In this document: positions 1 through 57,928 of the stretch, in pieces | How positions within the stretch are numbered: the stretch's first letter is position 1 | Layout of the letters: each line of letters starts with the position of its first letter | Made by a program: the position numbers and the translations under genes | Origin: Kofleriaceae bacterium | Lineage (GTDB): Bacteria > Myxococcota_A > Polyangia > Haliangiales > Haliangiaceae | Length of the DNA stretch: 64,000 nt | Direction: 5' to 3' | Assembly (NCBI GenBank): GCA_018057825.1 | Contig: JAGPCY010000011.1 | Location: 1-64,000, forward strand | The notes under the pieces: model-generated | Database searches by the model: none | What the model was told of the DNA's origin: nothing | The model's input: the letters and a program-made list of their open reading frames with translations, nothing else

Positions 1-270
1 GCGGCCGGGTGCGAGGCGTAGATGGCGGCCGGGTGCGAGGCGTAGATGGCGGCCGGGTGCGAGGCGTAGATGGCGGCCGGGTGCGAGGCGTAGATGGCGG
101 CGGGGTGCGAGGCGTAGATGGCGGCCGGGTGCGAGGCGTAGATGGCGGCGGGGTGCGAGGCGTAGATGGCGGCGGGTTGCGAGGCGTAGATGGCGGCGGG
201 TTGCGAGGCGTAGATGGCGGCAGGCTGCGAGGCGTAGATGGCGGCGGGCTGCGAGGCGTAGATGGCGGCG
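1..270 (-). repeat. 24-bp tandem repeat encoding octapeptides
   Basis: At least eleven 24-bp units lie in frame inside the left-edge gene. The shared core GCGAGGCGTA starts at 11, 35, 59 and then every 24 bp to 251. Units differ mainly at the codon for the last residue: CAC in the seven leftmost units, CAA or CAG in the four rightmost. The array continues past the window edge. Confidence 0.9.
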
Positions 271-485
271 GGTTGTGTCGGAGGCGCCACCGCGCCGGGC
301 AGGGTGGCCAGCGCCTGGCGACCGATCTGGGCGTGGATCCGGTTGCCGTCGCCCGATGCGAGGATCGCGCGATCTTCCTCGGAGAGATCCGCCTTGGCGA
401 TGGCGGCCCCGGGATCCGCCGCGAAGGCCTGCTGGGCGGCGGGATCCGCAGCGAGGGAAGCCAGGTACTGGAGCAACGTCGACAT
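1..485 (-). CDS. Octapeptide-repeat protein with short helical N-terminal domain (3' end cut by window)
   Basis: The gene reads leftward from an ATG at 485 and leaves the window still open. The start is supported by GGAG five bases upstream. The first ~70 residues (starting MSTLLQYLASLAADPAAQQ) form a small helical domain with the pattern FAADPGAAIAKADLSEEDRA and SGDGNRI. This resembles the LigA-type small domain (LSxEDRxxLxSGD) found in short uncharacterised proteins and some dioxygenase small subunits. An APPTQ linker follows, then at least eleven perfect copies of the octapeptide PAAIYAS[QH]. The copies nearest the N terminus carry Gln and the seven distal ones carry His. No signal peptide is seen. 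Function is unknown; a repeat-bearing structural or peptide-precursor role is only a guess. Confidence 0.75.
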   Translation of the reverse strand, partial: MSTLLQYLASLAADPAAQQAFAADPGAAIAKADLSEEDRAILASGDGNRIHAQIGRQALATLPGAVAPPTQPAAIYASQPAAIYASQPAAIYASQPAAIYASQPAAIYASHPAAIYASHPAAIYASHPAAIYASHPAAIYASHPAAIYASHPAAIYASHPA

Positions 486-676
486 CGGGACTCCGTCAGG
501 TTGGATTTGGCCGGAGGCCGGGCTGCGCCCGGCCCGAGGAGCGACCGCGAGTTGGACCACCCCCGCGGGGGTCGCGACGCCGCGACCCGAGGACGCCAAG
601 TGTATCGCGAGGCGGGGCGGGCTGGCCGCCCACGCGGCACTGACAGCGGGGTGGCATCGTGGGACCGGGGCGCTCG

Positions 677-3226
677 CTAGAGCGAGCGGGCGAGGCGGAA
701 CCCGAGCGTCACGTCGCGGACGACCGACGGCGTGTTGTGGCGCGTCGCGGCCCGCAGCAGGAAGGCGTCGAACAGAAAACACCCGCCGCGCAAGGCGCGC
801 TCGCCCGGGGTCGGGGCGTGCCCCGGCGGCAGGTAGATGCCGTCGACCAGCGGCGGGCCCTCGCGTCGATACTCGTCGGCACACCAGCTGATCGTGTTGC
901 CGGCCATGCCCCGCGCGCCGTACGGGCTGACGTCGACCGGGAAGGCGTCGACCTCGACGGGGCGGAGGCTACCCTCGCGCGACAGCCGCATGCCGGCCCA
1001 GGTCGGGTCGAACGCGTCGCCCCAGGGGAAGCTGCGGCCATCGACGCCGCGGGCCGCCTTCTCGAACTCGAGCTCGCCCGGGAGCCGATAGGCCCGGCCA
1101 CAGCGCCGCGACTCCCAGTCGGCGAAGGCGACCGCGCCGTGCCAGTTGACCATGAACGCTGGCACCGTCGGGCCCCAGCTCAGGCCCTCGTCGTCGACCC
1201 CCAGGTCGAAGTGTCCCGAGGGCAGGCGCGGCCAGATCAGCGTCCCGGCCTCGGCCGCCGAGGCGCCGCGGTGACGCGGCACCACGCTCAGCGCCAGGGC
1301 CTCAGCCTCGGCGGTCCCCTCGTCGATCAGGGCGTTAACCATGGTCAGCAGTTCGCGGTTGGTGACCGGATCGCGACGCAGCGCGAACCCGTCGACCCAG
1401 ACCCGCTGTCGGGGCATGACCTCACCGGCGGCCTGGGGATCACCGCCGCACCAGAACGGTCCTGCGGGGACGAACACCTCGTCGCGATCGAGCTGGTCGA
1501 GCCGAGGCAGCACCACCGGCGTCGGGCCGACGGCCCCCGGGCGGATCGGGTTCCAATGTTCCTGGCGACCGATCGCCACCGGGTAGCGGACCTCGTGGTG
1601 GCCTGGGGCCCGCAGCACGAGCAGGTAGCTCCCGCGCTCGAGCTCGTGATCGACCAGCGGGGTCGGGCCGAGGTCGGCGACGTGGGTGTCGACCAGGCGG
1701 CGGCCGCGCAGCTCGTAGCGCCGCAGCTCGACCTGCGCTGGCGGCTCGGTATAGAGCGTCACGGCGCCGCGGCCAGCCAGGTAGGTGGCGTGCTCGCCGC
1801 GGTCGTGGACCCGCAGCTTGGCCTCGAGTGCCCGGGCCGCCGGGTCACGACGCTCCTCGGCGGTGGCGTGGAGCTTGCGGTAGTGGCGCGCCAGCATGGC
1901 GTGGGCCTCGGGCAGCTCGGCCTCGATGAGCGACAGGTCGATCAGGCGGTTCATCTCGACGGTGGCGAGCTCGGCCTCGATGCGCTGGCGCGCCGCGGCG
2001 TCCTCGAGCTCCCAGCCCGGCTGCTTGGCCTCGCTCGGCGCCGACGGAGGGAGCGGATCGAGGATGACCCGGGCCTGGCTCTCGAGGTCGGCGGCCTCGG
2101 CTTCGCACGCCGCGATCCGCGGCACCAGCGCCTCGGCCTGTTCGAGCAAGGCGCGCGCACGTTCGCGCTTGCGGGCACCGTCGAGGAACCCGGCGACCGC
2201 CTGACCCAGGTCGCTGGCGTCGACCCATCGCGCGTCCGGATCGGTCGCGGTGGCCCGGCTGGCGATCGCGATCAACTCCTCGGGCAGCGGGCGTTCAGCC
2301 GCCGCCACGATCGGCGCCAGGACGCCCATCCGCTCCGGCAGGGTCGGCGGTCGTCCGAGCAGGATCTCACGCAGGATCATGCCGAGCGCGTAGACGTCGG
2401 TCGGCGGGCCGAGCTCGATCTCCCCCGAGGCCTGCTCGGGAGACATGTACCCGGCGGTGCCGGCGATCTGTCCGGCCTGGCTCATCAAGGCGTCGTCCTC
2501 GCCGCGCGTCGTCGACGGCGCCGGGCTCTGACCGTCGGTCCGGGAGCCGATCCGCGCCAGCCCCCAGTCGAGGACCAGGACCTCGCCGAACGGACCGAGC
2601 ATGATGTTCTGCGGCTTGAGATCGCGATGGACCACGCCGCGGGCGTGGGCGAACCCGACGCACTCGCACACCCGATGGAAGTAGTCGATCAAGCGGCGGA
2701 ACGAGACGCCGCCCGCCTCGGGGGCCCAGCCGGTGGCCGACGCCGCATGGACCGCCTCGATGACCATCGACAACGTGCGCCCGCGGATCTCCGCCATCGT
2801 GTAGTAGGGCCGCCCGTCGGTCAGCGTGCCGATCTCATGGACCGGCACGACGCTCGGGTGCTGGAGCTGCGCCGTGACCTGCGCCTCCTGGACGAAGCGC
2901 GCCAGGGCGACCGGGTCGTCGGTCCACCAGTCGCCCAGCACCTTCATCACCATGTCGCGGCGGAGCTGGCGATCGAAGACCCGGTAGACGTCACCCTGGC
3001 CGCCGGCGGCCAGGTGCTTGCCGAGGACGTAGCGCTCGGGCGGCACCGGCTGGGCGCGCGGCCGCGCGCCCCGGGAGGCCCCGGCGGTCGCCTCTTGGAT
3101 CACGCTGCCGAGCGCCATCGTCACGGCGTTCGACATCCCAGCCGGGGCGCCATCGGAGCGCGCGGTCTGGGCGTCGGACGCGGTCTGCGCCACCTCCGGC
3201 GGGCTGCCCCCCTCGGGCTCGGACAT
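677..3226 (-). CDS. Ser/Thr protein kinase fused to a formylglycine-generating-enzyme (SUMF1-type) domain
   Basis: 849 aa. The kinase domain spans roughly residues 66-350: a Gly loop AAGGQGDVY, Lys95, HRDLKPQN at 200-207, DWG at 220-222 (in place of DFG) and GTAGYMSPE. A coiled, Glu/Ala-rich linker follows. From about 600 there is an FGE-sulfatase/EgtB-PvdO domain: FVPAGPFWCGGD, RVWVDGFALRRDPVTN, WHGAVAFADWESRRCGRAYRLP, FPWGD, and the closing RGGCF and GFRLARS. This kinase-FGE architecture is known from Planctomycetes and Myxococcota; substrates are unknown and the FGE-like part need not make formylglycine. ATG at 3226 has TAACAT six bases upstream and no Shine-Dalgarno. No membrane span is evident, so it is probably cytoplasmic. 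Confidence 0.93.
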   Translation of the reverse strand: MSEPEGGSPPEVAQTASDAQTARSDGAPAGMSNAVTMALGSVIQEATAGASRGARPRAQPVPPERYVLGKHLAAGGQGDVYRVFDRQLRRDMVMKVLGDWWTDDPVALARFVQEAQVTAQLQHPSVVPVHEIGTLTDGRPYYTMAEIRGRTLSMVIEAVHAASATGWAPEAGGVSFRRLIDYFHRVCECVGFAHARGVVHRDLKPQNIMLGPFGEVLVLDWGLARIGSRTDGQSPAPSTTRGEDDALMSQAGQIAGTAGYMSPEQASGEIELGPPTDVYALGMILREILLGRPPTLPERMGVLAPIVAAAERPLPEELIAIASRATATDPDARWVDASDLGQAVAGFLDGARKRERARALLEQAEALVPRIAACEAEAADLESQARVILDPLPPSAPSEAKQPGWELEDAAARQRIEAELATVEMNRLIDLSLIEAELPEAHAMLARHYRKLHATAEERRDPAARALEAKLRVHDRGEHATYLAGRGAVTLYTEPPAQVELRRYELRGRRLVDTHVADLGPTPLVDHELERGSYLLVLRAPGHHEVRYPVAIGRQEHWNPIRPGAVGPTPVVLPRLDQLDRDEVFVPAGPFWCGGDPQAAGEVMPRQRVWVDGFALRRDPVTNRELLTMVNALIDEGTAEAEALALSVVPRHRGASAAEAGTLIWPRLPSGHFDLGVDDEGLSWGPTVPAFMVNWHGAVAFADWESRRCGRAYRLPGELEFEKAARGVDGRSFPWGDAFDPTWAGMRLSREGSLRPVEVDAFPVDVSPYGARGMAGNTISWCADEYRREGPPLVDGIYLPPGHAPTPGERALRGGCFLFDAFLLRAATRHNTPSVVRDVTLGFRLARSL

Positions 3227-5421: not shown

Positions 5422-7173
5422 ATGCATCCCCTGGTCCGCCTGTGGCGTTACGCCGGCGCCTATCGCACCCGGATCCGCCTGGCGGTCCTCTACACCGTCA
5501 TCAACAAGCTGTTCGACATCCTGCCCGAGGTGCTGATCGGCGTCGCGGTCGACGTCGTGGTCCGCCGCGAGGGCTCGTGGCTGTCGAGCCTCGGGGTCGA
5601 CGGCGTCGAGACCCAGCTCTACCTCCTGGCCGCGATCACCGCGGTGGTGTGGATGAGCGAGTCGGCCTTCGAGTACGCCTACGAGGTGGCGTGGCGCGAT
5701 CTGGCCCAGGCCCTCCAGCACGAGCTGCGCCTCGACGTCTACCGCCACGTCCAGTCCCTCGACGTCGCCTACTTCGAGGACAAGCAGGCCGGCGCGATCC
5801 TCAGCACGCTGAACGACGACATCAACCAGCTCGAGCGCTTCTTGAACGACGGCGCGACCCAGATCATCTTGGTGATCGCGTCGACCCTGTTGTGCGGCGT
5901 GGCCTTCGTCGTGGTCGCCCCCGGCACGGCGCTGTTCGCGCTGGCGCCGATCCCGGTCATCCTCTACGGCGCCTACTGGTTCCAGGGCCGCCTCGAGCGT
6001 CGCTACCTGGCGGTCCGGGCCGAGGCCGCCGAACTCAATGGCCTGGTCGGCAACAACCTGGGCGGGCTGACGACGATCCGCGCCTTCGGCCGCGAGGACC
6101 ACGAGGCAGTTCGGGTCGAGGGCGGTAGCGCGCGCTACCGCGAGGCCAACCGGCGCGCGATCCGGCTGTCGAGCGCGATCACGCCGGTCATCCGCATGGC
6201 GATCATGGCCGGGTTCATCGCCACGCTGGTGGTTGGCGGTCACCTGACCCTGCGCGGCGAGCTGGCGGTCGGGGCCTACTCGGTGTTCGTGTTCCTGACC
6301 CAGCGCCTCTTGTGGCCCCTGACCCGGCTGGCCCAGGTGACCGACATGTACAACCGCTCGATGGCGTCGGCGCGCCGGGCCTTCGCGCTCCTCGACACGC
6401 CGCTCGCCCATCCGGCCGGCACCGCGCCGCTCGGCGACGCCGCCCAGGGGGACGTGCGCTTCGAGGGGGTCGAGTTCGCCTACGCCGATGGACCGCCGGT
6501 CCTGCGCGGCCTCACGCTCACCGCCGCGGCCGGCCGCACCACCGCCCTGGTCGGCACCACCGGGGCCGGCAAGAGCACGGTGATGAAGCTGCTCCTCAAG
6601 TTCTACCGGGCGACTGGCGGCGCGATCACCCTCGGCGGGCGCGCGCTCGATGAGCTCGATGACGTCGCGGTCCGCGCCGCGGTCGGCTACGTCGGCCAGG
6701 ACGTGTTCCTGATCGACGGCACGATCGCCGACAACATCCGCTACGGGCGCCTCGACGCCAGCGACGCCGAGGTCGAGGTTGCGGCCCGCGCCGCGGCCGC
6801 CCACGACTTCATCGCCGCGCTGCCCGACGGCTACGCCACCCGGGTCGGCGAGCGCGGCCAGAAGCTGTCGGGCGGTCAGCGCCAGCGCCTGGCCATCGCT
6901 CGGGCCCTGGTCCGCGACCCGGCGATCCTTATCCTCGACGAGGCCACCAGCGCGGTCGACAACGAGACCGAGGCCGCGATCGCCCGGGCCCTGGCCGACA
7001 TCACCCGGGGCCGCACGACGATCATGGTCGCGCACCGCCTATCGACCATCCGCCACGCCGACGAGATCTTCGTGCTCGAGAACGGCGCCGTCCTCGAGCG
7101 CGGCACCCACGAGGAGCTGGTCGCGCGCGGTGGCGCCTACGCCGCGCTCTGGCGGCTCCAGACCGGCGACTGA
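5422..7173 (+). CDS. ABC transporter, fused permease and ATPase (MsbA/LmrA-type exporter)
   Basis: 583 aa half-transporter. An exporter-type six-helix membrane domain spans residues ~15-310. The nucleotide-binding domain spans ~340-580, with Walker A GTTGAGKST near 378, Q-loop GQDVFLIDGTI, signature LSGGQRQRLAIARAL near 483, Walker B ILILDEATSAVD and switch MVAHRLST. It would work as a homodimer in the inner membrane. The substrate (lipid, drug or peptide) cannot be told; no C39 peptidase domain or adaptor gene is nearby. A hexanucleotide repeat tract starts 27 bp after its stop codon. Confidence 0.95.
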   Translation: MHPLVRLWRYAGAYRTRIRLAVLYTVINKLFDILPEVLIGVAVDVVVRREGSWLSSLGVDGVETQLYLLAAITAVVWMSESAFEYAYEVAWRDLAQALQHELRLDVYRHVQSLDVAYFEDKQAGAILSTLNDDINQLERFLNDGATQIILVIASTLLCGVAFVVVAPGTALFALAPIPVILYGAYWFQGRLERRYLAVRAEAAELNGLVGNNLGGLTTIRAFGREDHEAVRVEGGSARYREANRRAIRLSSAITPVIRMAIMAGFIATLVVGGHLTLRGELAVGAYSVFVFLTQRLLWPLTRLAQVTDMYNRSMASARRAFALLDTPLAHPAGTAPLGDAAQGDVRFEGVEFAYADGPPVLRGLTLTAAAGRTTALVGTTGAGKSTVMKLLLKFYRATGGAITLGGRALDELDDVAVRAAVGYVGQDVFLIDGTIADNIRYGRLDASDAEVEVAARAAAAHDFIAALPDGYATRVGERGQKLSGGQRQRLAIARALVRDPAILILDEATSAVDNETEAAIARALADITRGRTTIMVAHRLSTIRHADEIFVLENGAVLERGTHEELVARGGAYAALWRLQTGD

Positions 7174-7200
7174 CCCGCTGGTTTTCCCCGGCCGACCCGC

Positions 7201-7258
7201 CTCGGCCTCGGTCTCGGCCTCGGTCTCGACCTCGGTCTCGGCCTCGGTCTCGGTCTCC
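7201..7258. repeat. CTCGGY hexanucleotide tract A
   Basis: About 58 bp of CTCGGC/CTCGGT units in + orientation, beginning 27 bp after the ABC transporter stop. Confidence 0.9.
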
Positions 7259-7523: not shown

Positions 7524-7799
7524 TCGGTCTCCGCCTCGGCCTCGGTCTCGATCTCGGTCCGCCTCGGTCTCGGCCTCGGTCTCGGCCTCGGCCTCGGCCT
7601 CGGCCTCGGTCTCGGTCTCGGTCTCGGCCTCGGCCTCGGTCTCGGCCTCGGTCTCGATTTCGGTCCGCCTCGGACTCGGCCTCGGTCTCGGCCTCGGTCT
7701 CGGTCTCGGTCTCGGCCTCGGTCTCGGTCGGTCTCCGCCTCGGTCTCGGTCTCGGTCTCGGTCTCGGCCTCAGTCTCGGCCTCGGTCTCCGCCTCGGCC
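7524..7799. repeat. CTCGGY hexanucleotide tract B
   Basis: About 276 bp (roughly 46 units) of CTCGGC/CTCGGT with scattered CTCCGC and CTCGAT variants, + orientation. It sits 63 bp beyond the stop codon of the giant leftward adhesin gene. Confidence 0.95.
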
Positions 7800-7862: not shown

Positions 7863-10800
7863 CTAGTTCGGCGCGCCGGGGCTGGAGGTCCGGAGCGCGA
7901 AGTCGGCGGCGTTGTCCTGCGTGTCGCGGCCGTTCGGGATGCGCGACATGCTCTGCAACGGGGCGGGGAGCGCCGCCGCCGTGTCACCGGTGGGGTGGCC
8001 CGTGCCTTCGACGAACGCGAAGGTCCCGACCAGCCCGGCCAGCGCGCCGGTTGCGACGGAACCTTCGTAGCTGAACACGTCGACGGGCACCGGCGTGGCC
8101 GCGCTGAAGTCGTACAGTCCGATGGCGTCCGGCGCGCCATTCTGGATCCAGCCCGCGGTGGGCGAGGTGATGTTGATCCGGGCCACGCCGACCGGCGTGA
8201 CCACGGCGGCCTGCCCGATCACGATCATCCCCCCGGGGGCCAGCAGGTTGCCAGGCAGGCCGGCGCTGGCGAGGCTGATCCGCTTCGAGGCGTTCGCAGC
8301 GCCCGTCGAGCCATCGAAGAAGTACTCGGCGCCTGGGGTCGAGTTGCCATTCATCAGGACCAGCCGGACGTTGGTGACGTCCGCCGGCGCGGTGCCGACG
8401 TTTTGCACCTCGACGAACTCCACGGTGTCGTTGCCCGGCTGATCGTAGTCGACCTCGTTGATCACTAGCTTGGCGCACGTGCTCGGCGCGCCGCTGCAGG
8501 TCGCGCCCGCCTCGATCGCGCACGTCGCCGAGCAGCCATCGCCGCTGGTGCGGTTGCCGTCGTCGCAGGCGTCGCCGGCGTGGAGGATGCCGTCGCCGCA
8601 GGTGGTCGGCGGCAGCTCGCACACCCGGCTGGTGGTGAAGCCGACGAAGCTGCAGTTGGTGTCGCCCCAGTTGGCCAGACCGTCGACGCCGGCCAGGCAG
8701 TCGCCGTTGCCGCCCACGCCGACGTCGTCGTCGGGCTCGCCGGCGGCGAACGACGTGAAGCCGCCGAACGCCTCGGTGGTGACCCAGCGGAACGTGCCCT
8801 CGGTCGCGGTGTCGCTGGCGCCGAGCCACGGGACGCCGATGTGGTGGAGCATGTGCAGCCGATCCTGCTCGGCGGCGCTGGTGACCGTGATCAGGTAGCC
8901 GTTCAGACCCACGCACGCGGTCTGGGCGTCGGCCCAGGTCGTCGAGCCAGTGAACGTGATGTAGCAGTGGCCCGTCGACGGCTCGGTCGAATAGGCGGCG
9001 CCACCGGGGATCGCCGCGGCGGTGCAGATCCGCCCGGTCACACACTGCGACGTGCAGCCGTCGGTGTCGGGGCCCGGGCCGTCGTCGCACTGCTCACCGC
9101 CGACCACCAGGGTGTCGCCGCAGATCTCGTCACAGGCGCTGGGCTGACCGGTACACGTCCATCCGGTCTCGGTCGCGCACGCCGCCGAGCAGCCGTCGCC
9201 GGGCGCCGTCCCGAAGTCGTCGCAGGTCTCGGGCAGCTCGATCACGCCGTCGCCGCACACCACGACGTTGTTGACGGTGATGCCGACCGTGGCCGGCGCC
9301 GAGCTGACCGTGCCGTCGTTGGCCGTGAAGGTGAAGCTATCGGGCCCGACGTAGCCGGCGGTCGGGGTGTAGGTCACGGTCGCGCTGGTCGCGGTAGCCG
9401 GCGTGATGGCGCCGAGCGCGCCGTTGGTCGGCCCGGTCGCGACCGCGAACGTCAGGGCGTCGCCGTCGAGGTCGTTGCCGGTCAGGGTGATCACCAGCGA
9501 GCCATTCTCGTTGACCGACACGGTCTGCCCGTTGGCCACTGGTGGGTCGTTCACGGCGTTCAGGTTGATCGTCACCGTGGCCGGCGGGCTGACGTCGCCG
9601 TCGGCGTCGGTCACGGTGTACGTGAACGTGTCGGTGCCGTTGTGGTTGGCGTTGGGGATGTAGAGGATGTTCGTCGCGCCTGGGGTGGCGGTGCCGTTGG
9701 CCGGCGCCGTCGCGATCGCGATCGTGAGGCCACCGTCGCCCAGGCCGGTGTCGTTGGTGAGGACGTCGACGAAGATGCCGAGGTCCTCGTCGGTGAAGCC
9801 GACGTCGGCGACCGCGACCGGCAGGTCGTCGACCGCGGTGACGGTGACCGTGACCCGGCCGATGTCGGTCGAGGTGCCGTCCGAGATCGTGTAGTCGAAG
9901 CCGGCGACGCCGAAGAAGTTGGCGGTCGGGGTAAAGGTCACGACGCCGGCCGCCAGGCCGACGGTGCCGTTGGTCGCGCCGCCGACCGCGGTGACGGTCG
10001 GCGTGCTGTCGAGGTCGGTGTCGTTGGCCAGGAGCGTGGCGACCGGGATGAGGAGCGCGCTGTCCTCGTCGGTGGTCGCGGTGTCGTCGACCGCGACCGG
10101 CGGGTCATCGACGGCGGTGACTGTCACGGTCACCCGGCCGGTGTCGGACAGCACGCCGTCGGACACGGTGTAGTCGAACCCGGCGGTGCCCGCGAAGTTG
10201 GCGGTCGGGGTGAACGTGATCACGCCGCCGGCCAGGGTGACGGTGCCGTTGGTCGGGTTGTCGACCGCGGTCACGGTCAGCGTATCGCCGTCGAAGTCGG
10301 TGTCGTTGGCGACCAGGGTGGCGGCGGTGATGGTGGCCGCGGTGTCCTCGGCGGTGGTGGCGGTGTCGTCGACCGCGATCGGCGGATCGTTGACGTTGCC
10401 GATCGACACCGTGACCAGGCCGGTGTCGACGGTCGCGCCGTCGGTCACCGTATAGGTGAACGACGCGAAGCCGGTGAAGCCGGTGGTCGGGGTGAAGGTG
10501 GTGACCCCGGCGGCGCGCCCGACCGTGCCGTTGACCGCGCCCCCGACCGCGATGATCGCCAGCAGGTCGCCGTCGGCGTCGGTGTCGTTGGCAAGGAGGA
10601 CGGCGTCGGGGAAGGTGACCGCGACGTCCTGGTTGGTGGTGCCGGCGTCATCGACCGCGACCGGGGCGTCGTTGACCGCGGTGACCGTGACGGTGACGCG
10701 GCCGGTGTCGGTGGCGGTGCCGTCGGACACGGTGTAGTCGAAGCCGGCGGTGCCGGCGAAGTTGGCGGCCGGGGTGAAGGTGACGGTCGTGCCGGCCAGG

Positions 10801-13262
10801 GCCACGGTGCCGTTGGTGGCGCCGCCGACCGCGGTGATCGTCAGGGTGTCGCCGTCGCCGTCGGTGTCGTTGGCCAGGAGCGTGGCGGCGGTGAGCGTGG
10901 CCGCGGTGTCCTCGGCCGTCGTCGCGGTGTCATCGACCGCGACCGGGGCGTCGTTGACCGCGGTGACCGTGACCGTGACGCGGCCGGTGTCGGTGGTGGT
11001 GCCGTCGGACACGACGTAATCGAAGCCGGCGGTGCCGGAGAAGTTGGCGGCCGGGGTGAAGGTGATCGTGGTGCCGGCCAGGGCGACGGTGCCGTTGGTG
11101 TCGCCCCCGACCGCGGTGATCGTCAGGGCGTCGCCGTCGCCGTCGGTGTCGTTGGCCAGGAGCGTGGCGGCGGTGAGCGTGGCCGCGGTGTCCTCGGTGG
11201 TGGTCGCGGTGTCGTCGACGGCGACCGGCGGGTCGTTGACCGCGGTGACGGTGACCGTGACCCGGCCACTGTCGGTCGCGGTGCCGTCGGACACGGTGTA
11301 GTCGAAGCCGGCGGTGCCCGAGAAGTTGGCGGCCGGGGTGAAGGTGATCGTGGTGCCGGCCAGGGCGACGGTGCCGTTGGTGGCGCCGCTGACCGCGGTG
11401 ACCGTCAGGGTCGCGCCCTCGGCGTCGGTGTCGTTGGCCAGGAGCGTGGCGGCGGTGATCGTGGCCGCGGTGTCCTCGACGGTGGTGGCGGTGTCGTCGA
11501 CCGCGACCGGCGGATCGTTGACCGCGGTGACCGTGACGGTGACCCGGCCGGTGTCGGTGGCGGTGCCGTCGGACACGGTGTAGTCGAAGCCGGCGGTGCC
11601 CGAGAAGTTGGCGGCCGGCGTGAAGGTGACGGTCGTGCCGGCCAGGGCGACGGTGCCGTTGGTCGCGCCGCTGACCGCGGTGATCGACAGGGTCGCGCCC
11701 TCGGCGTCGGTGTCGTTGGCCAGGAGCGTCGCGGCGGTGAGCGTGGCCGCGGTGTCTTCGGCGGTCGTCGCGGTGTCATCGACCGCGACCGGCGGGTCGT
11801 TGACCGCGGTGACGGTGACCGTGACGCGGCCGGTGTCGGTGGCGGTGCCGTCGGACACCGTGTAGTCGAAGCCGGCGGTGCCGGCGAAGTTGGCGGCCGG
11901 GGTGAAGGTGACGGTGGTGCCGGCCAGGGCGACGGTGCCATTGGTCGCGCCGCTGACCGCGGTGAGCGTCAGGGTCGCGCCCTCGGCGTCGGTGTCGTTG
12001 GCCAGGAGCGTCGCGGCGGTGAGCGTGGCCGCGGTGTCCTCGACGGTGGTGGCGGTGTCGTCGACCGCGATCGGCGGGTCGTTGACCGCGGTGACCGTGA
12101 CGGTGACGCGGCCGGTGTCGGTGGCGGTGCCGTCGGACACCGTGTAGTCAAAGCCGGCGGTGCCCGAGAAGTTGGCGGCCGGGGTGAAGGTGACGGTCGT
12201 GCCGGCCAGGGCGACGGTGCCGTTGGTGGCGCCGCTGACCGCGGTGACCGTCAGGGTCGCGCCCTCGGCGTCGGTGTCGTTGGCGAGGAGCGTCGCGGCG
12301 GTGAGCGTGGCCGCGGTGTCCTCGGTGGTGGTGGCGGTGTCGTCGACCGCGACCGGGGCGTCGTTGACCGGGGTGACCGTGACGGTGACGCGGCCGGTGT
12401 CGGTGGCGGCGCCATCGGACACCGTGTAGTCGAAGCCGGCGGTGCCGGCGAAGTTGGCGGCCGGGGTGAAGGTCACGGTGCCGCCAGCCAGGGCGACGGT
12501 GCCGTTGGTGGCGCCGCTGACCGCCGTGAGCGACAGGGTCTGGCCCTCGGCGTCGGTGTCGTTGGCGAGGAGCGTCGCGACGGTGAGCGTGGCCGCGGTG
12601 TCCTCGGCGGTGGTGGCGGTGTCGTCGACCGCGACCGGCGGATCGTTGGCGCCGCCCACCGCGACCGTGACCACCGCGGTGTCGGTGGCGGTGCCGTCGC
12701 TGACGGTGTACTCGAAGGTCGCGTCGCCGACGAAGTCGGCGGCCGGCGTGAACGTGATGTCGTTGCCGGCCAGGGCGACGGTGCCGTTCACGGCAGCGCC
12801 CACCGCGCTGATCGTCAGCGTGTCGCCGTCGACGTCGGTGTCGTTGGCCACGAGCGCGGCTGCGGTGATCGTCGCGGCGGTGTCCTCGGCGGCGGCCGCG
12901 CTGTCGTCGACGGCGACCGGCGCGTCGTTGACCGGCGTGACCGTGATGGTCACGGTCGCGGTCGCGGTCAGCTCGCCGTCGCTGACCGTGATGGTCGCGC
13001 TGTCGGGGCCCTGGTAGTTGGCGTCAGGGGTGTAGGTGAGGGTCGAGCCCGAGACCGCGATCGTCCCGTGGTCGGGCTCGCTGGCGGTGAACCGCAGCGC
13101 CTCACCTTCGGGATCGGTGGCGCTGATCGTGAACTCGACCGGGGTGTCCTCGGCGGTCGTGATCGCGCGGTCGGCGGCGGTCGGCGGCTGATCGCCCTTC
13201 AGGTTGTCGCCGCAAGCCACCAGCAATGCGGCGCAGGAGAGCGCGAACGCGTAGGTCCTCAT
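7863..13262 (-). CDS. Giant surface lipoprotein: cadherin-like repeats, C-type lectin domain, lamin-tail domain
   Basis: 1799 aa. The lipoprotein signal ends LLVAC (Cys17). About fourteen ~94-residue cadherin-like/Big_9 domains follow to ~1330. Each carries VNDxPVAVDDTATT, ANDTD, NGTVALAG and FTPAANFxGTAGFDYTVSDG, and the middle ones are nearly identical. Then come two DUF4215-type Cys repeats (CGDGVIELPETCDD, ~1333), a C-type lectin-like domain (~1409-1550, with HCYITF, WADAQTAC and WGDTNC), a third Cys repeat (CGDGILHAGDACDDGN) and a lamin-tail domain (VINEVDYDQPGND, ~1596 on). The likely role is a long fibrous adhesin or carbohydrate-binding protein on the cell surface; this is inferred from domains. 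Start ATG follows TACGGT by 8 bases. A 1565-codon open frame on the opposite strand is a by-product of the repeats. Confidence 0.95.
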   Translation of the reverse strand: MRTYAFALSCAALLVACGDNLKGDQPPTAADRAITTAEDTPVEFTISATDPEGEALRFTASEPDHGTIAVSGSTLTYTPDANYQGPDSATITVSDGELTATATVTITVTPVNDAPVAVDDSAAAAEDTAATITAAALVANDTDVDGDTLTISAVGAAVNGTVALAGNDITFTPAADFVGDATFEYTVSDGTATDTAVVTVAVGGANDPPVAVDDTATTAEDTAATLTVATLLANDTDAEGQTLSLTAVSGATNGTVALAGGTVTFTPAANFAGTAGFDYTVSDGAATDTGRVTVTVTPVNDAPVAVDDTATTTEDTAATLTAATLLANDTDAEGATLTVTAVSGATNGTVALAGTTVTFTPAANFSGTAGFDYTVSDGTATDTGRVTVTVTAVNDPPIAVDDTATTVEDTAATLTAATLLANDTDAEGATLTLTAVSGATNGTVALAGTTVTFTPAANFAGTAGFDYTVSDGTATDTGRVTVTVTAVNDPPVAVDDTATTAEDTAATLTAATLLANDTDAEGATLSITAVSGATNGTVALAGTTVTFTPAANFSGTAGFDYTVSDGTATDTGRVTVTVTAVNDPPVAVDDTATTVEDTAATITAATLLANDTDAEGATLTVTAVSGATNGTVALAGTTITFTPAANFSGTAGFDYTVSDGTATDSGRVTVTVTAVNDPPVAVDDTATTTEDTAATLTAATLLANDTDGDGDALTITAVGGDTNGTVALAGTTITFTPAANFSGTAGFDYVVSDGTTTDTGRVTVTVTAVNDAPVAVDDTATTAEDTAATLTAATLLANDTDGDGDTLTITAVGGATNGTVALAGTTVTFTPAANFAGTAGFDYTVSDGTATDTGRVTVTVTAVNDAPVAVDDAGTTNQDVAVTFPDAVLLANDTDADGDLLAIIAVGGAVNGTVGRAAGVTTFTPTTGFTGFASFTYTVTDGATVDTGLVTVSIGNVNDPPIAVDDTATTAEDTAATITAATLVANDTDFDGDTLTVTAVDNPTNGTVTLAGGVITFTPTANFAGTAGFDYTVSDGVLSDTGRVTVTVTAVDDPPVAVDDTATTDEDSALLIPVATLLANDTDLDSTPTVTAVGGATNGTVGLAAGVVTFTPTANFFGVAGFDYTISDGTSTDIGRVTVTVTAVDDLPVAVADVGFTDEDLGIFVDVLTNDTGLGDGGLTIAIATAPANGTATPGATNILYIPNANHNGTDTFTYTVTDADGDVSPPATVTINLNAVNDPPVANGQTVSVNENGSLVITLTGNDLDGDALTFAVATGPTNGALGAITPATATSATVTYTPTAGYVGPDSFTFTANDGTVSSAPATVGITVNNVVVCGDGVIELPETCDDFGTAPGDGCSAACATETGWTCTGQPSACDEICGDTLVVGGEQCDDGPGPDTDGCTSQCVTGRICTAAAIPGGAAYSTEPSTGHCYITFTGSTTWADAQTACVGLNGYLITVTSAAEQDRLHMLHHIGVPWLGASDTATEGTFRWVTTEAFGGFTSFAAGEPDDDVGVGGNGDCLAGVDGLANWGDTNCSFVGFTTSRVCELPPTTCGDGILHAGDACDDGNRTSGDGCSATCAIEAGATCSGAPSTCAKLVINEVDYDQPGNDTVEFVEVQNVGTAPADVTNVRLVLMNGNSTPGAEYFFDGSTGAANASKRISLASAGLPGNLLAPGGMIVIGQAAVVTPVGVARINITSPTAGWIQNGAPDAIGLYDFSAATPVPVDVFSYEGSVATGALAGLVGTFAFVEGTGHPTGDTAAALPAPLQSMSRIPNGRDTQDNAADFALRTSSPGAPN
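10740..12710 (-). repeat. 282-bp tandem repeats encoding 94-aa cadherin-like domains
   Basis: Near-identical units repeat every 282 bp: equivalent positions recur at 10750, 11032, 11314, 11596, 11878, 12160 and 12442. Divergence is low and mostly synonymous, which fits recent duplication or gene conversion. Flanking units at either end are more diverged. Confidence 0.9.
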
Positions 13263-14140: not shown

Positions 14141-14222
<82 letters not shown>

Positions 14223-16496: not shown

Positions 16497-16509
16497 GCCC
16501 CGCGGCCGC

Positions 16510-16657
<148 letters not shown>

Positions 16658-18835: not shown

Positions 18836-18918
18836 GCCCCGCGGCGGCGCGCCTGTGCGGAACCCGTGCTCGGGCCATCGGGGTACAGGTCGCCACCCTC
18901 CCTCTCGATCCGAATCGA

Positions 18919-19264
18919 CCTCGGCCTCGGTCTCGGCCTCCGCCTCGGCCTCGGTCTCGGTCTCGGCCTCGGTCTCGGTCTCGGCCTCCGCCTCGGCCTC
19001 GGCCTCGGTCTCGGTCTCGGTCTCGGCCTCGGTCTCGGTCTCGGCCTCCGCCTCGGCCTCGGCCTCGGTCTCGGTCTCGGTCTCGGCCTCGGTCTCGGCC
19101 TCGGTCTCGGCCTCGGCCTCGGTCTCGGCCTCGGTCTCCGTCTCGGTCTCGGCCTCGGTCTCGGCCTCGGCCTCGGTCTCGGTCTCGGTCTCCGCCTCGG
19201 TCTCGGCCTCGGTCTCCGCCTCGGTCTCCGCCTCGGTCTCCGCCTCGGTCTCGGTCTCGGCCTT
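18919..19264. repeat. CTCGGY hexanucleotide tract E, with a 60-bp internal duplication
   Basis: About 346 bp (58 units), + orientation, ending 23 bp from the rdgB stop. Bases 18961-19020 and 19021-19080 are identical, so ten units were duplicated as a block. The rest of the 18787-19287 gap holds only the tRNA promoter and unremarkable GC-rich sequence. Confidence 0.95.
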
Positions 19265-25241: not shown

Positions 25242-25353
<112 letters not shown>

Positions 25354-28805: not shown

Positions 28806-28950
28806 CCCCGGCATTCGCCGGGGCCCCCTCCAAAAACGATCCGACCTGACCTCGGGCCCCGCAAGCGCGTGCGGGCGATCGCGATGGGATGTTGCCACCG
28901 ACGTTCATCGGGGACTGAGGGACGCGGAGCGCGAGTTCGCGGGGGACCCC

Positions 28951-29088
<138 letters not shown>

Positions 29089-46620: not shown

Positions 46621-47003
<383 letters not shown>

Positions 47004-47049
47004 CGTCTCTCCTCTCCTCCTCGCGGCGCATCGATCGCTCCGACCGTGC

Positions 47050-57790: not shown

Positions 57791-57928
57791 TTCCGCCTCG
57801 GCTTCGGTCTCGGTCTCCGCCTCGGTCTCGGTCTCGGTCTCGGCCTCGGCCTCGGTCTCGGTCCCGGCCTCGGCTTCGGCCTCTGCCTCTGTCTCGGACT
57901 CGGTCTCGGTCTCGGTCTCGGCCTCCCG
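57791..57928. repeat. CTCGGY hexanucleotide tract I
   Basis: About 138 bp in + orientation with CTCGGCTT and CTCTGC variants. It lies between the stops of the convergent TerB-like and outer-membrane barrel genes (16 and 20 bp away). It is followed by a short CCGCTA repeat. Confidence 0.93.

What the first reader, a model, noticed from the sequence alone, without database searches (positions are those of the whole stretch)
1..485. Octapeptide-repeat protein with a Gln-to-His switch along the array
A ~70-residue helical N-terminal domain precedes at least eleven perfect PAAIYAS[Q/H] repeats. The proximal copies end in Gln and the distal seven in His, while the other seven positions are invariant. 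A short helical domain followed by identical short repeats could be a peptide precursor with a leader and multiple cores, a filament or a metal-binding array. I do not know a described family with this layout.
Basis: partly seen in the sequence, partly recalled or inferred. Interest (0 to 1): 0.6.

Follow-up and report, generated by a model that had tools for sequence, protein, structure and literature searches.

The report
Many-copy precursor of N-methylated peptides
The repeat gene at the window edge is the first half of a peptide precursor whose partner enzyme, cut off by a break in the genome assembly, belongs to the borosin family that adds methyl groups to the peptide backbone; here one precursor carries about 40 near-identical copies of the short target sequence instead of the usual single one.

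Summary
Observation confirmed: a minus-strand ORF (window 485..3) has a helical N-terminal domain and 11 perfect PAAIYAS[Q/H] repeats, 4 ending in Q then 7 in H. The window starts at a contig end inside the array. The other half of the gene lies at the end of contig C80. An exact 96-bp overlap in frame, and synteny with a relative in which everything is on one contig, support the join.

The merged protein has at least 449 aa and at least 39 copies. Beyond the window the eighth residue returns to Gln, Arg or Gly, so the "switch" is a local expansion; the AIYA motif is the constant.

Overlapping the precursor stop is a borosin alpha-N-methyltransferase gene (SonM, E 1.6e-65; key SonM active-site residues kept), then a VioB-like ferritin-like gene and an unknown gene. 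The N-terminal domain is a borosin binding domain (family profile hits SonA, E 7e-15). Three more genomes hold the same locus, with VVYAA, MVYAA or MVYGA repeats.

Best reading: a multicore split borosin RiPP precursor, methylated in trans along the array. Known: enzyme and leader. Unusual: ~40 cores and VioB-like partners. Not shown: methylation, cleavage, product. Key borosin surveys were not readable here, so multicore types may already be described.

The parts
1..485 (-). 5' part of the precursor gene (161 aa shown; continues on contig C80 58519-59478, minus strand, to a stop; merged length at least 449 aa)
   Evidence: ORF; C80 continuation in frame with exact 96-bp overlap; same gene order on a single contig in relative G025
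306..485 (-). leader, residues 1-60: borosin binding domain (BBD), five-helix bundle
   Evidence: BBD profile without the order's members finds it at E 1.3e-16; family profile hits SonA E 7.3e-15; AlphaFold five helices; Foldseek top matches all borosins, TM 0.67-0.73 to the OphMA clasp
1..273 (-). core array: 11 x PAAIYAS[Q/H] in the window (4 Q, 7 H), 24-bp DNA unit; continues on C80 with 32 more AIYA motifs, 4 of them probably the same units
   Evidence: TRF; per-position codon table
491..494 (-). GGAG, possible ribosome-binding site of the precursor
   Evidence: sequence upstream of the ATG; inference
677..3226 (-). protein kinase + sulfatase-modifying-factor (FGE) fusion, directly upstream on the same strand; probable member of the locus
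   Evidence: Pfam PF00069 1.4e-27 and PF03781 3.1e-32; ortholog (E <= 1e-100) in exactly the 4 of 30 family genomes that hold the close methyltransferase, adjacent to the precursor in all four

Best explanation
The gene encodes the precursor of a split borosin, a ribosomally made peptide whose backbone amides are N-methylated, in a multicore form. The N-terminal BBD (about 60 residues) binds a separate SAM-dependent alpha-N-methyltransferase encoded by the next gene. The long, probably disordered tail presents at least 39 copies of a short core (AIYAS here; VVYAA, MVYAA, MVYGA in relatives), and the enzyme methylates backbone amides in or near the hydrophobic/Tyr motif repeatedly along the tail. 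The VioB-like ferritin-like protein and its partner, encoded in the same overlapping gene set, probably act on the same tail, with the invariant Tyr as the likeliest site. Shown: sequence, operon layout, BBD and enzyme homology with kept catalytic residues, conservation of the locus in four genomes. Inferred: methylation and its sites, oxidation by the VioB-like pair, and whether the tail is cut into octapeptides (no protease is conserved in the locus).
For: Next gene (C80:57722-58522) matches SonM E 1.6e-65 and OphMA E 3e-54; SonM Y58, R67, Y71, Y93, F99, W166, E146 all conserved, of which Y58, R67, Y71, Y93 were shown by mutation to matter in SonM (PMC8429565). Stop/start overlaps GTGA and ATGA link precursor, methyltransferase, ferritin-like gene and ORF3. 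BBD found in 67 of 80 loci that hold such a methyltransferase. Leader fold matches only borosins at the top. Same locus in three more genomes, with species-homogenised repeats.
Against: No methylation data. Most relatives surveyed do not have such arrays. A single BBD would have to serve cores up to ~380 residues away. SonM Q178 is Pro here. No conserved peptidase or exporter was seen. The single leader sequence alone does not find SonA by phmmer; the link needs a profile.
Confidence: 0.87

Rival explanations
1. The tail is methylated but never cut: a long backbone-methylated repeat protein serving a structural or protective role, not a peptide precursor.
For: No peptidase or transporter conserved in the locus; spacing between motifs varies (8-17 aa here, 8-12 in L018 and L020), unlike uniform excised cores.
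Against: Few mature borosins are known because the specific peptidase is usually missing from view (noted in PMC11395268), so absence says little; the uniform octapeptides of the window part would suit excision.
Confidence: 0.3
2. A plain repeat protein (filament, adhesin, metal binder) that merely sits beside the methyltransferase.
For: Low-complexity repeats of this kind do occur in structural proteins; Pfam Cornifin matches weakly (E 0.041, below cut-off).
Against: Leader is a BBD; overlapping start/stop codons with the methyltransferase; the pair is kept together in four genomes across three genera.
Confidence: 0.05
3. Assembly artefact: the repeat expansion or the join of C54 and C80 is wrong.
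For: The contig breaks in identical 24-bp units; copy number unresolved.
Against: Relative G025 has the same gene order from clpX to the cadherin-like gene on one contig, with a 309-aa repeat precursor; relative G011 has kinase-FGE, precursor, methyltransferase, ferritin-like gene and ORF3 on one contig; G029 breaks at the same place, as predicted.
Confidence: 0.03

Closest known systems
Split borosin SonM/SonA of Shewanella oneidensis (type IV; PMC8429565, PDB 7LTC)
   Same: separate SAM-dependent alpha-N-methyltransferase of the TP-methylase fold with the same active-site residues; N-terminal five-helix BBD on the precursor; adjacent genes; core C-terminal to the BBD
   Different: SonA is ~71-75 aa with one core methylated twice; here the precursor has at least 449 aa and at least 39 core motifs, and the operon has a VioB-like ferritin-like gene and an unknown gene
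Fused borosins (OphMA, dbOphMA, MroMA; type III KchMA, PMC11395268)
   Same: same methyltransferase and, as the clasp domain, the same BBD fold; KchMA carries up to 11 methylations on a long tail
   Different: enzyme and precursor are one polypeptide there; separate here
Multicore RiPP precursors such as the microviridin precursor AMdnA (PMC5934393), cyanobactins, fungal ustiloxins
   Same: one leader serving several tandem cores
   Different: other enzymes and leaders; three cores in AMdnA against ~40 here
VioB (iminophenyl-pyruvate dimer synthase) and Pfam Ferritin-like PF12902
   Same: the third gene matches PF12902 (E 4e-27) and the C-terminal part of the VioB model (E 1e-18, positions 594-959)
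   Different: 66.6 bits against the VioB equivalog cut-off of 1250; 439 aa against 1003 model positions

Membership tests
Split borosin | separately encoded alpha-N-methyltransferase homologous to SonM/OphMA | tested here: met
   SonM E 1.6e-65, OphMA E 3e-54; TP_methylase PF00590 E 1.3e-18
Split borosin | active-site residues of SonM (Y58, R67, Y71, Y93; F99 and W166 lock) | tested here: met
   all six identical, E146 too; Q178 is Pro
Split borosin | precursor with borosin binding domain | tested here: met
   profile and structure
Split borosin | precursor gene adjacent to the methyltransferase gene | tested here: met
   GTGA overlap on C80; on one contig in G025 and G011
Split borosin | backbone alpha-N-methylation of the core | not testable with these tools
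   needs mass spectrometry
Type IV borosin in the strict sense | short precursor (~75 aa) with a single core | tested here: not met
   at least 449 aa and at least 39 motifs; so filed as split borosin (BBD and core in one protein, enzyme separate: class 3 of PMC11395268), not as type IV
VioB equivalog (TIGR04492) | score above 1250 bits over 1003 positions | tested here: not met
   66.6 bits, positions 594-959 only
Pfam Ferritin-like (PF12902) | score above gathering cut-off 22.3 | tested here: met
   95.9 bits; EH and QEMEH motifs invariant in 6 homologs
LigA (PF07746) | score above gathering cut-off 25.3 | tested here: not met
   22.2 bits; SonA itself is deposited as 'LigA domain-containing protein'
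IniB N-terminal domain (NF038175) | score above cut-off 40 | tested here: not met
   30.7 bits, E 2.2e-7

The most novel reading that the evidence does not exclude
The product is a long, uncleaved polypeptide with tens of backbone N-methyl groups, in which the invariant Tyr of every repeat is further oxidised or cross-linked by a VioB-like ferritin-like enzyme and its partner: a ribosomally made, backbone-methylated polymer rather than a small natural product.
Probability: 0.13. Interest if true: 0.85.

Novelty: new variant of a known kind. Interest (0 to 1): 0.52.

Why it matters
Backbone N-methylation makes peptides protease-resistant and membrane-permeable, and borosins are one of the very few ribosomal routes to it. 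A precursor with about 40 cores behind one binding domain asks how a methyltransferase that works on SonA's 10-residue core reaches sites hundreds of residues away, and offers a natural scaffold for making many N-methylated peptides from one chain. The repeat-homogenised cores (one motif per genome, another in its relative) are a natural series for reading out substrate preference, and the VioB-like pair would add a new tailoring chemistry to borosins.

Tried and rejected
Own-genome hits on C72, C21 and C11 with repeat similarity are low-complexity repeats (some beside a transposase-like ORF), not precursors. The weak hit on C43 is not a BBD (best domain E 4.6). The ABC exporter at window 5422-7173 is collinear in G025 but not near the locus in G011 or G029, so it was not counted as a part. 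The HD gene is kept only in G025/L018. VioB itself was not found in 187 genomes of the phylum, nor in the 14 controls, so the guess (from memory) that ORF3 resembles the VioB N-terminal region could not be tested. ORF3 has no Pfam, NCBIfam, PDB or confident fold match (model pLDDT 74.8). ORF3 and the ferritin-like gene also occur as a pair with a kinase but without methyltransferase or BBD in other loci, so they are a portable module rather than borosin-specific. Imani 2022, Cho 2022 and Lee 2024, the surveys most likely to mention multicore borosins, are not held.

Full report
Observation. The minus-strand ORF at 485..3 reads MSTLLQYLASLAADPAAQQAFAADPGAAIAKADLSEEDRAILASGDGNRIHAQIGRQALATLPGAVAPPTQ followed by four PAAIYASQ and seven PAAIYASH. 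The DNA array (1-273, 24-bp unit, 11.4 copies, 96% matches, score 469) is far from chance.

The missing half. The window is the start of contig C54 of an 8.9-Mb, 84-contig genome. The same 24-bp unit, in the same orientation, fills the end of contig C80. The last 96 bases of C80 equal the first 96 of C54, and with that overlap the frames agree (arithmetic on the coordinates). The frame continues for 319 aa to a stop at C80:58519. Merged by the 96-bp overlap the precursor has 449 aa and 39 AIYA-type motifs; since both contig ends consist of identical units these are minimum values. The join is supported by relatives: in G025 one contig carries, in this order, the end of clpX, the HD gene, ORF3, the ferritin-like gene, methyltransferase, repeat precursor, kinase-FGE gene, lipoprotein-like gene, bactofilin-like gene, ABC exporter and cadherin-like gene, which is the order obtained by joining C80 to C54. 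In G029 the methyltransferase contig starts inside a repeat array; the contig with the kinase-FGE gene was therefore expected to end in leader plus repeats, and it does (60-bp overlap).

The array. In the window part all eleven copies share seven of eight residues. In the C80 part I is 32 of 32 and Y 32 of 32, the alanine before I 31 of 31, the residue after Y is Ala in 31 of 32, while position 8 is Q 14, G 7, H 6, R 4, S 1 and motif spacings of 8 to 17 residues occur. Thus Gln to His is not a gradient but a block of recently copied His units. The three relatives have VVYAA (25 motifs, L018), MVYGA (14, L020) and MVYAA (at least 12, L019, with the other end of the same array in L121), each nearly uniform within its genome and different between genomes, with synonymous changes among copies. 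Tyr followed by Ala/Gly is the shared element; one Tyr in L018 is Asn.

The leader. Pfam LigA matches at E 1.6e-4, just under its cut-off. A profile seeded with three leaders of this family finds such a domain in 67 of 80 loci that hold a borosin-type methyltransferase, from many phyla. Rebuilt without members of this order, the profile still finds the window leader at E 1.3e-16 and nothing else in the window; its rows were gathered from a search begun with the window's family, so this is not a fully independent test. The profile of 45 leaders hits SonA in the PDB at E 7.3e-15 and the clasp of OphMA at 2e-5. The AlphaFold model of the window leader has five helices, as described for SonA's BBD (PMC8429565), and the first 43 Foldseek matches are all borosin entries, TM about 0.6-0.73 over the query, though with E-values of 0.2-2 because the domain is tiny.

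The enzymes. The gene overlapping the precursor stop (GTGA) encodes 266 aa with SonM as best PDB match, E 1.6e-65. Y58, R67, Y71, Y93, F99, W166 and E146 of SonM are identical; Q178 is Pro. The next gene overlaps by ATGA and is a PF12902 ferritin-like protein (E 4e-27) resembling VioB positions 594-959 (E 1e-18, far under the equivalog cut-off), with EH and QEMEH motifs kept in six homologs. The fourth gene, ORF3, again overlaps by ATGA and matches nothing known. Ferritin-like gene and ORF3 were not found in the other borosin loci checked outside this family and occur elsewhere in this bacterial family with a kinase but no methyltransferase. Upstream, a kinase-FGE fusion gene (window 677-3226) has orthologs in exactly the four of 30 family genomes that hold the close methyltransferase. 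So the conserved set is kinase-FGE, precursor, methyltransferase, ferritin-like, ORF3.

Mechanism. From SonM/SonA (PMC8429565): the BBD docks on the methyltransferase, the core lies in the active site, and methylation proceeds N to C. By analogy the tail here is methylated repeatedly; which amides is unknown. SonA is methylated on Leu63 and Ile65 in its core, so I-Y of each motif are the likeliest neighbourhood (inference). Borosin methyltransferases tolerate varied cores (review PMC11285071), so strict conservation of Tyr may reflect another enzyme or the product's function; the VioB-like pair is the candidate (speculation). No peptidase or transporter is conserved, so release of octapeptides is open.

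Comparison and novelty. It meets the tested defining features of split borosins and fails the size and single-core features of type IV in the strict sense. By the scheme in PMC11395268 it would be class 3 (BBD and core together, enzyme separate). Repeated tails also occur in BBD precursors of Solirubrobacter soli (L059) and a Phenylobacterium MAG (L064), with different units, so multicore borosins seem to have arisen more than once. The surveys that define types V-X could not be read, hence 'new variant of a known kind' with that reservation.

Noticed in passing
L024 9289-9567 and 9668-10456; also L026, L027, L028, L034, L036, L040, L041, L045, L050, L053, L056, L062: In these cyanobacterial borosin loci a BBD precursor with a short D-P-D-P tail lies about 2-3 kb after the methyltransferase, with TPR-like ORFs between (seen in L024), and is followed within about 0.1-0.7 kb by a sequence similar to Ser/Thr kinases. 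Kinase-like neighbours occur in 32 of the loci searched.
   Followed up: partly
L059 5225-5977; L064 5260-5865; L072 and L077 2298-2804: Other BBD precursors with tandem-repeat tails: PQILPQIHPQQIFPQVA (Solirubrobacter soli), HPQIFPQ (Phenylobacterium MAG), LSTRAP (Polyangium).
   Followed up: partly
L060 5782-6783; L074 580-1584: BBD fused N-terminally to the methyltransferase with no obvious core between them; the core must be elsewhere or absent.
   Followed up: no
L039 5810-5989; L067 5804-5986: BBD at the C-terminal end of a ~400-residue open frame just upstream of the methyltransferase; possibly a BBD fused to another protein.
   Followed up: no
L102-L105, L106-L109: Ferritin-like (VioB-like) + ORF3 + Ser/Thr kinase as a three-gene module without borosin genes, in related genomes.
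   Followed up: partly
window:294-485: The leader also resembles the IniB N-terminal domain model NF038175 (E 2e-7, below cut-off); IniB-type proteins might share the BBD/LigA fold.
   Followed up: no
window 7199-7257, 7524-7797, 14141-14222, 16509-16657, 18915-19263, 25248-25353, 28950-29088, 46622-47015, 57795-57925: Many arrays of a 6-bp unit (CTCGGT/CTCGGC), several apparently between genes; similar arrays occur at other sites of the genome (L010, L011, L012), in two cases near a transposase-like ORF.
   Followed up: no
window 7863-13262: 1799-aa minus-strand protein with about eleven ~94-residue cadherin/Ig-like repeats (282-bp DNA period) and Cys-rich segments near the C-terminus.
   Followed up: no
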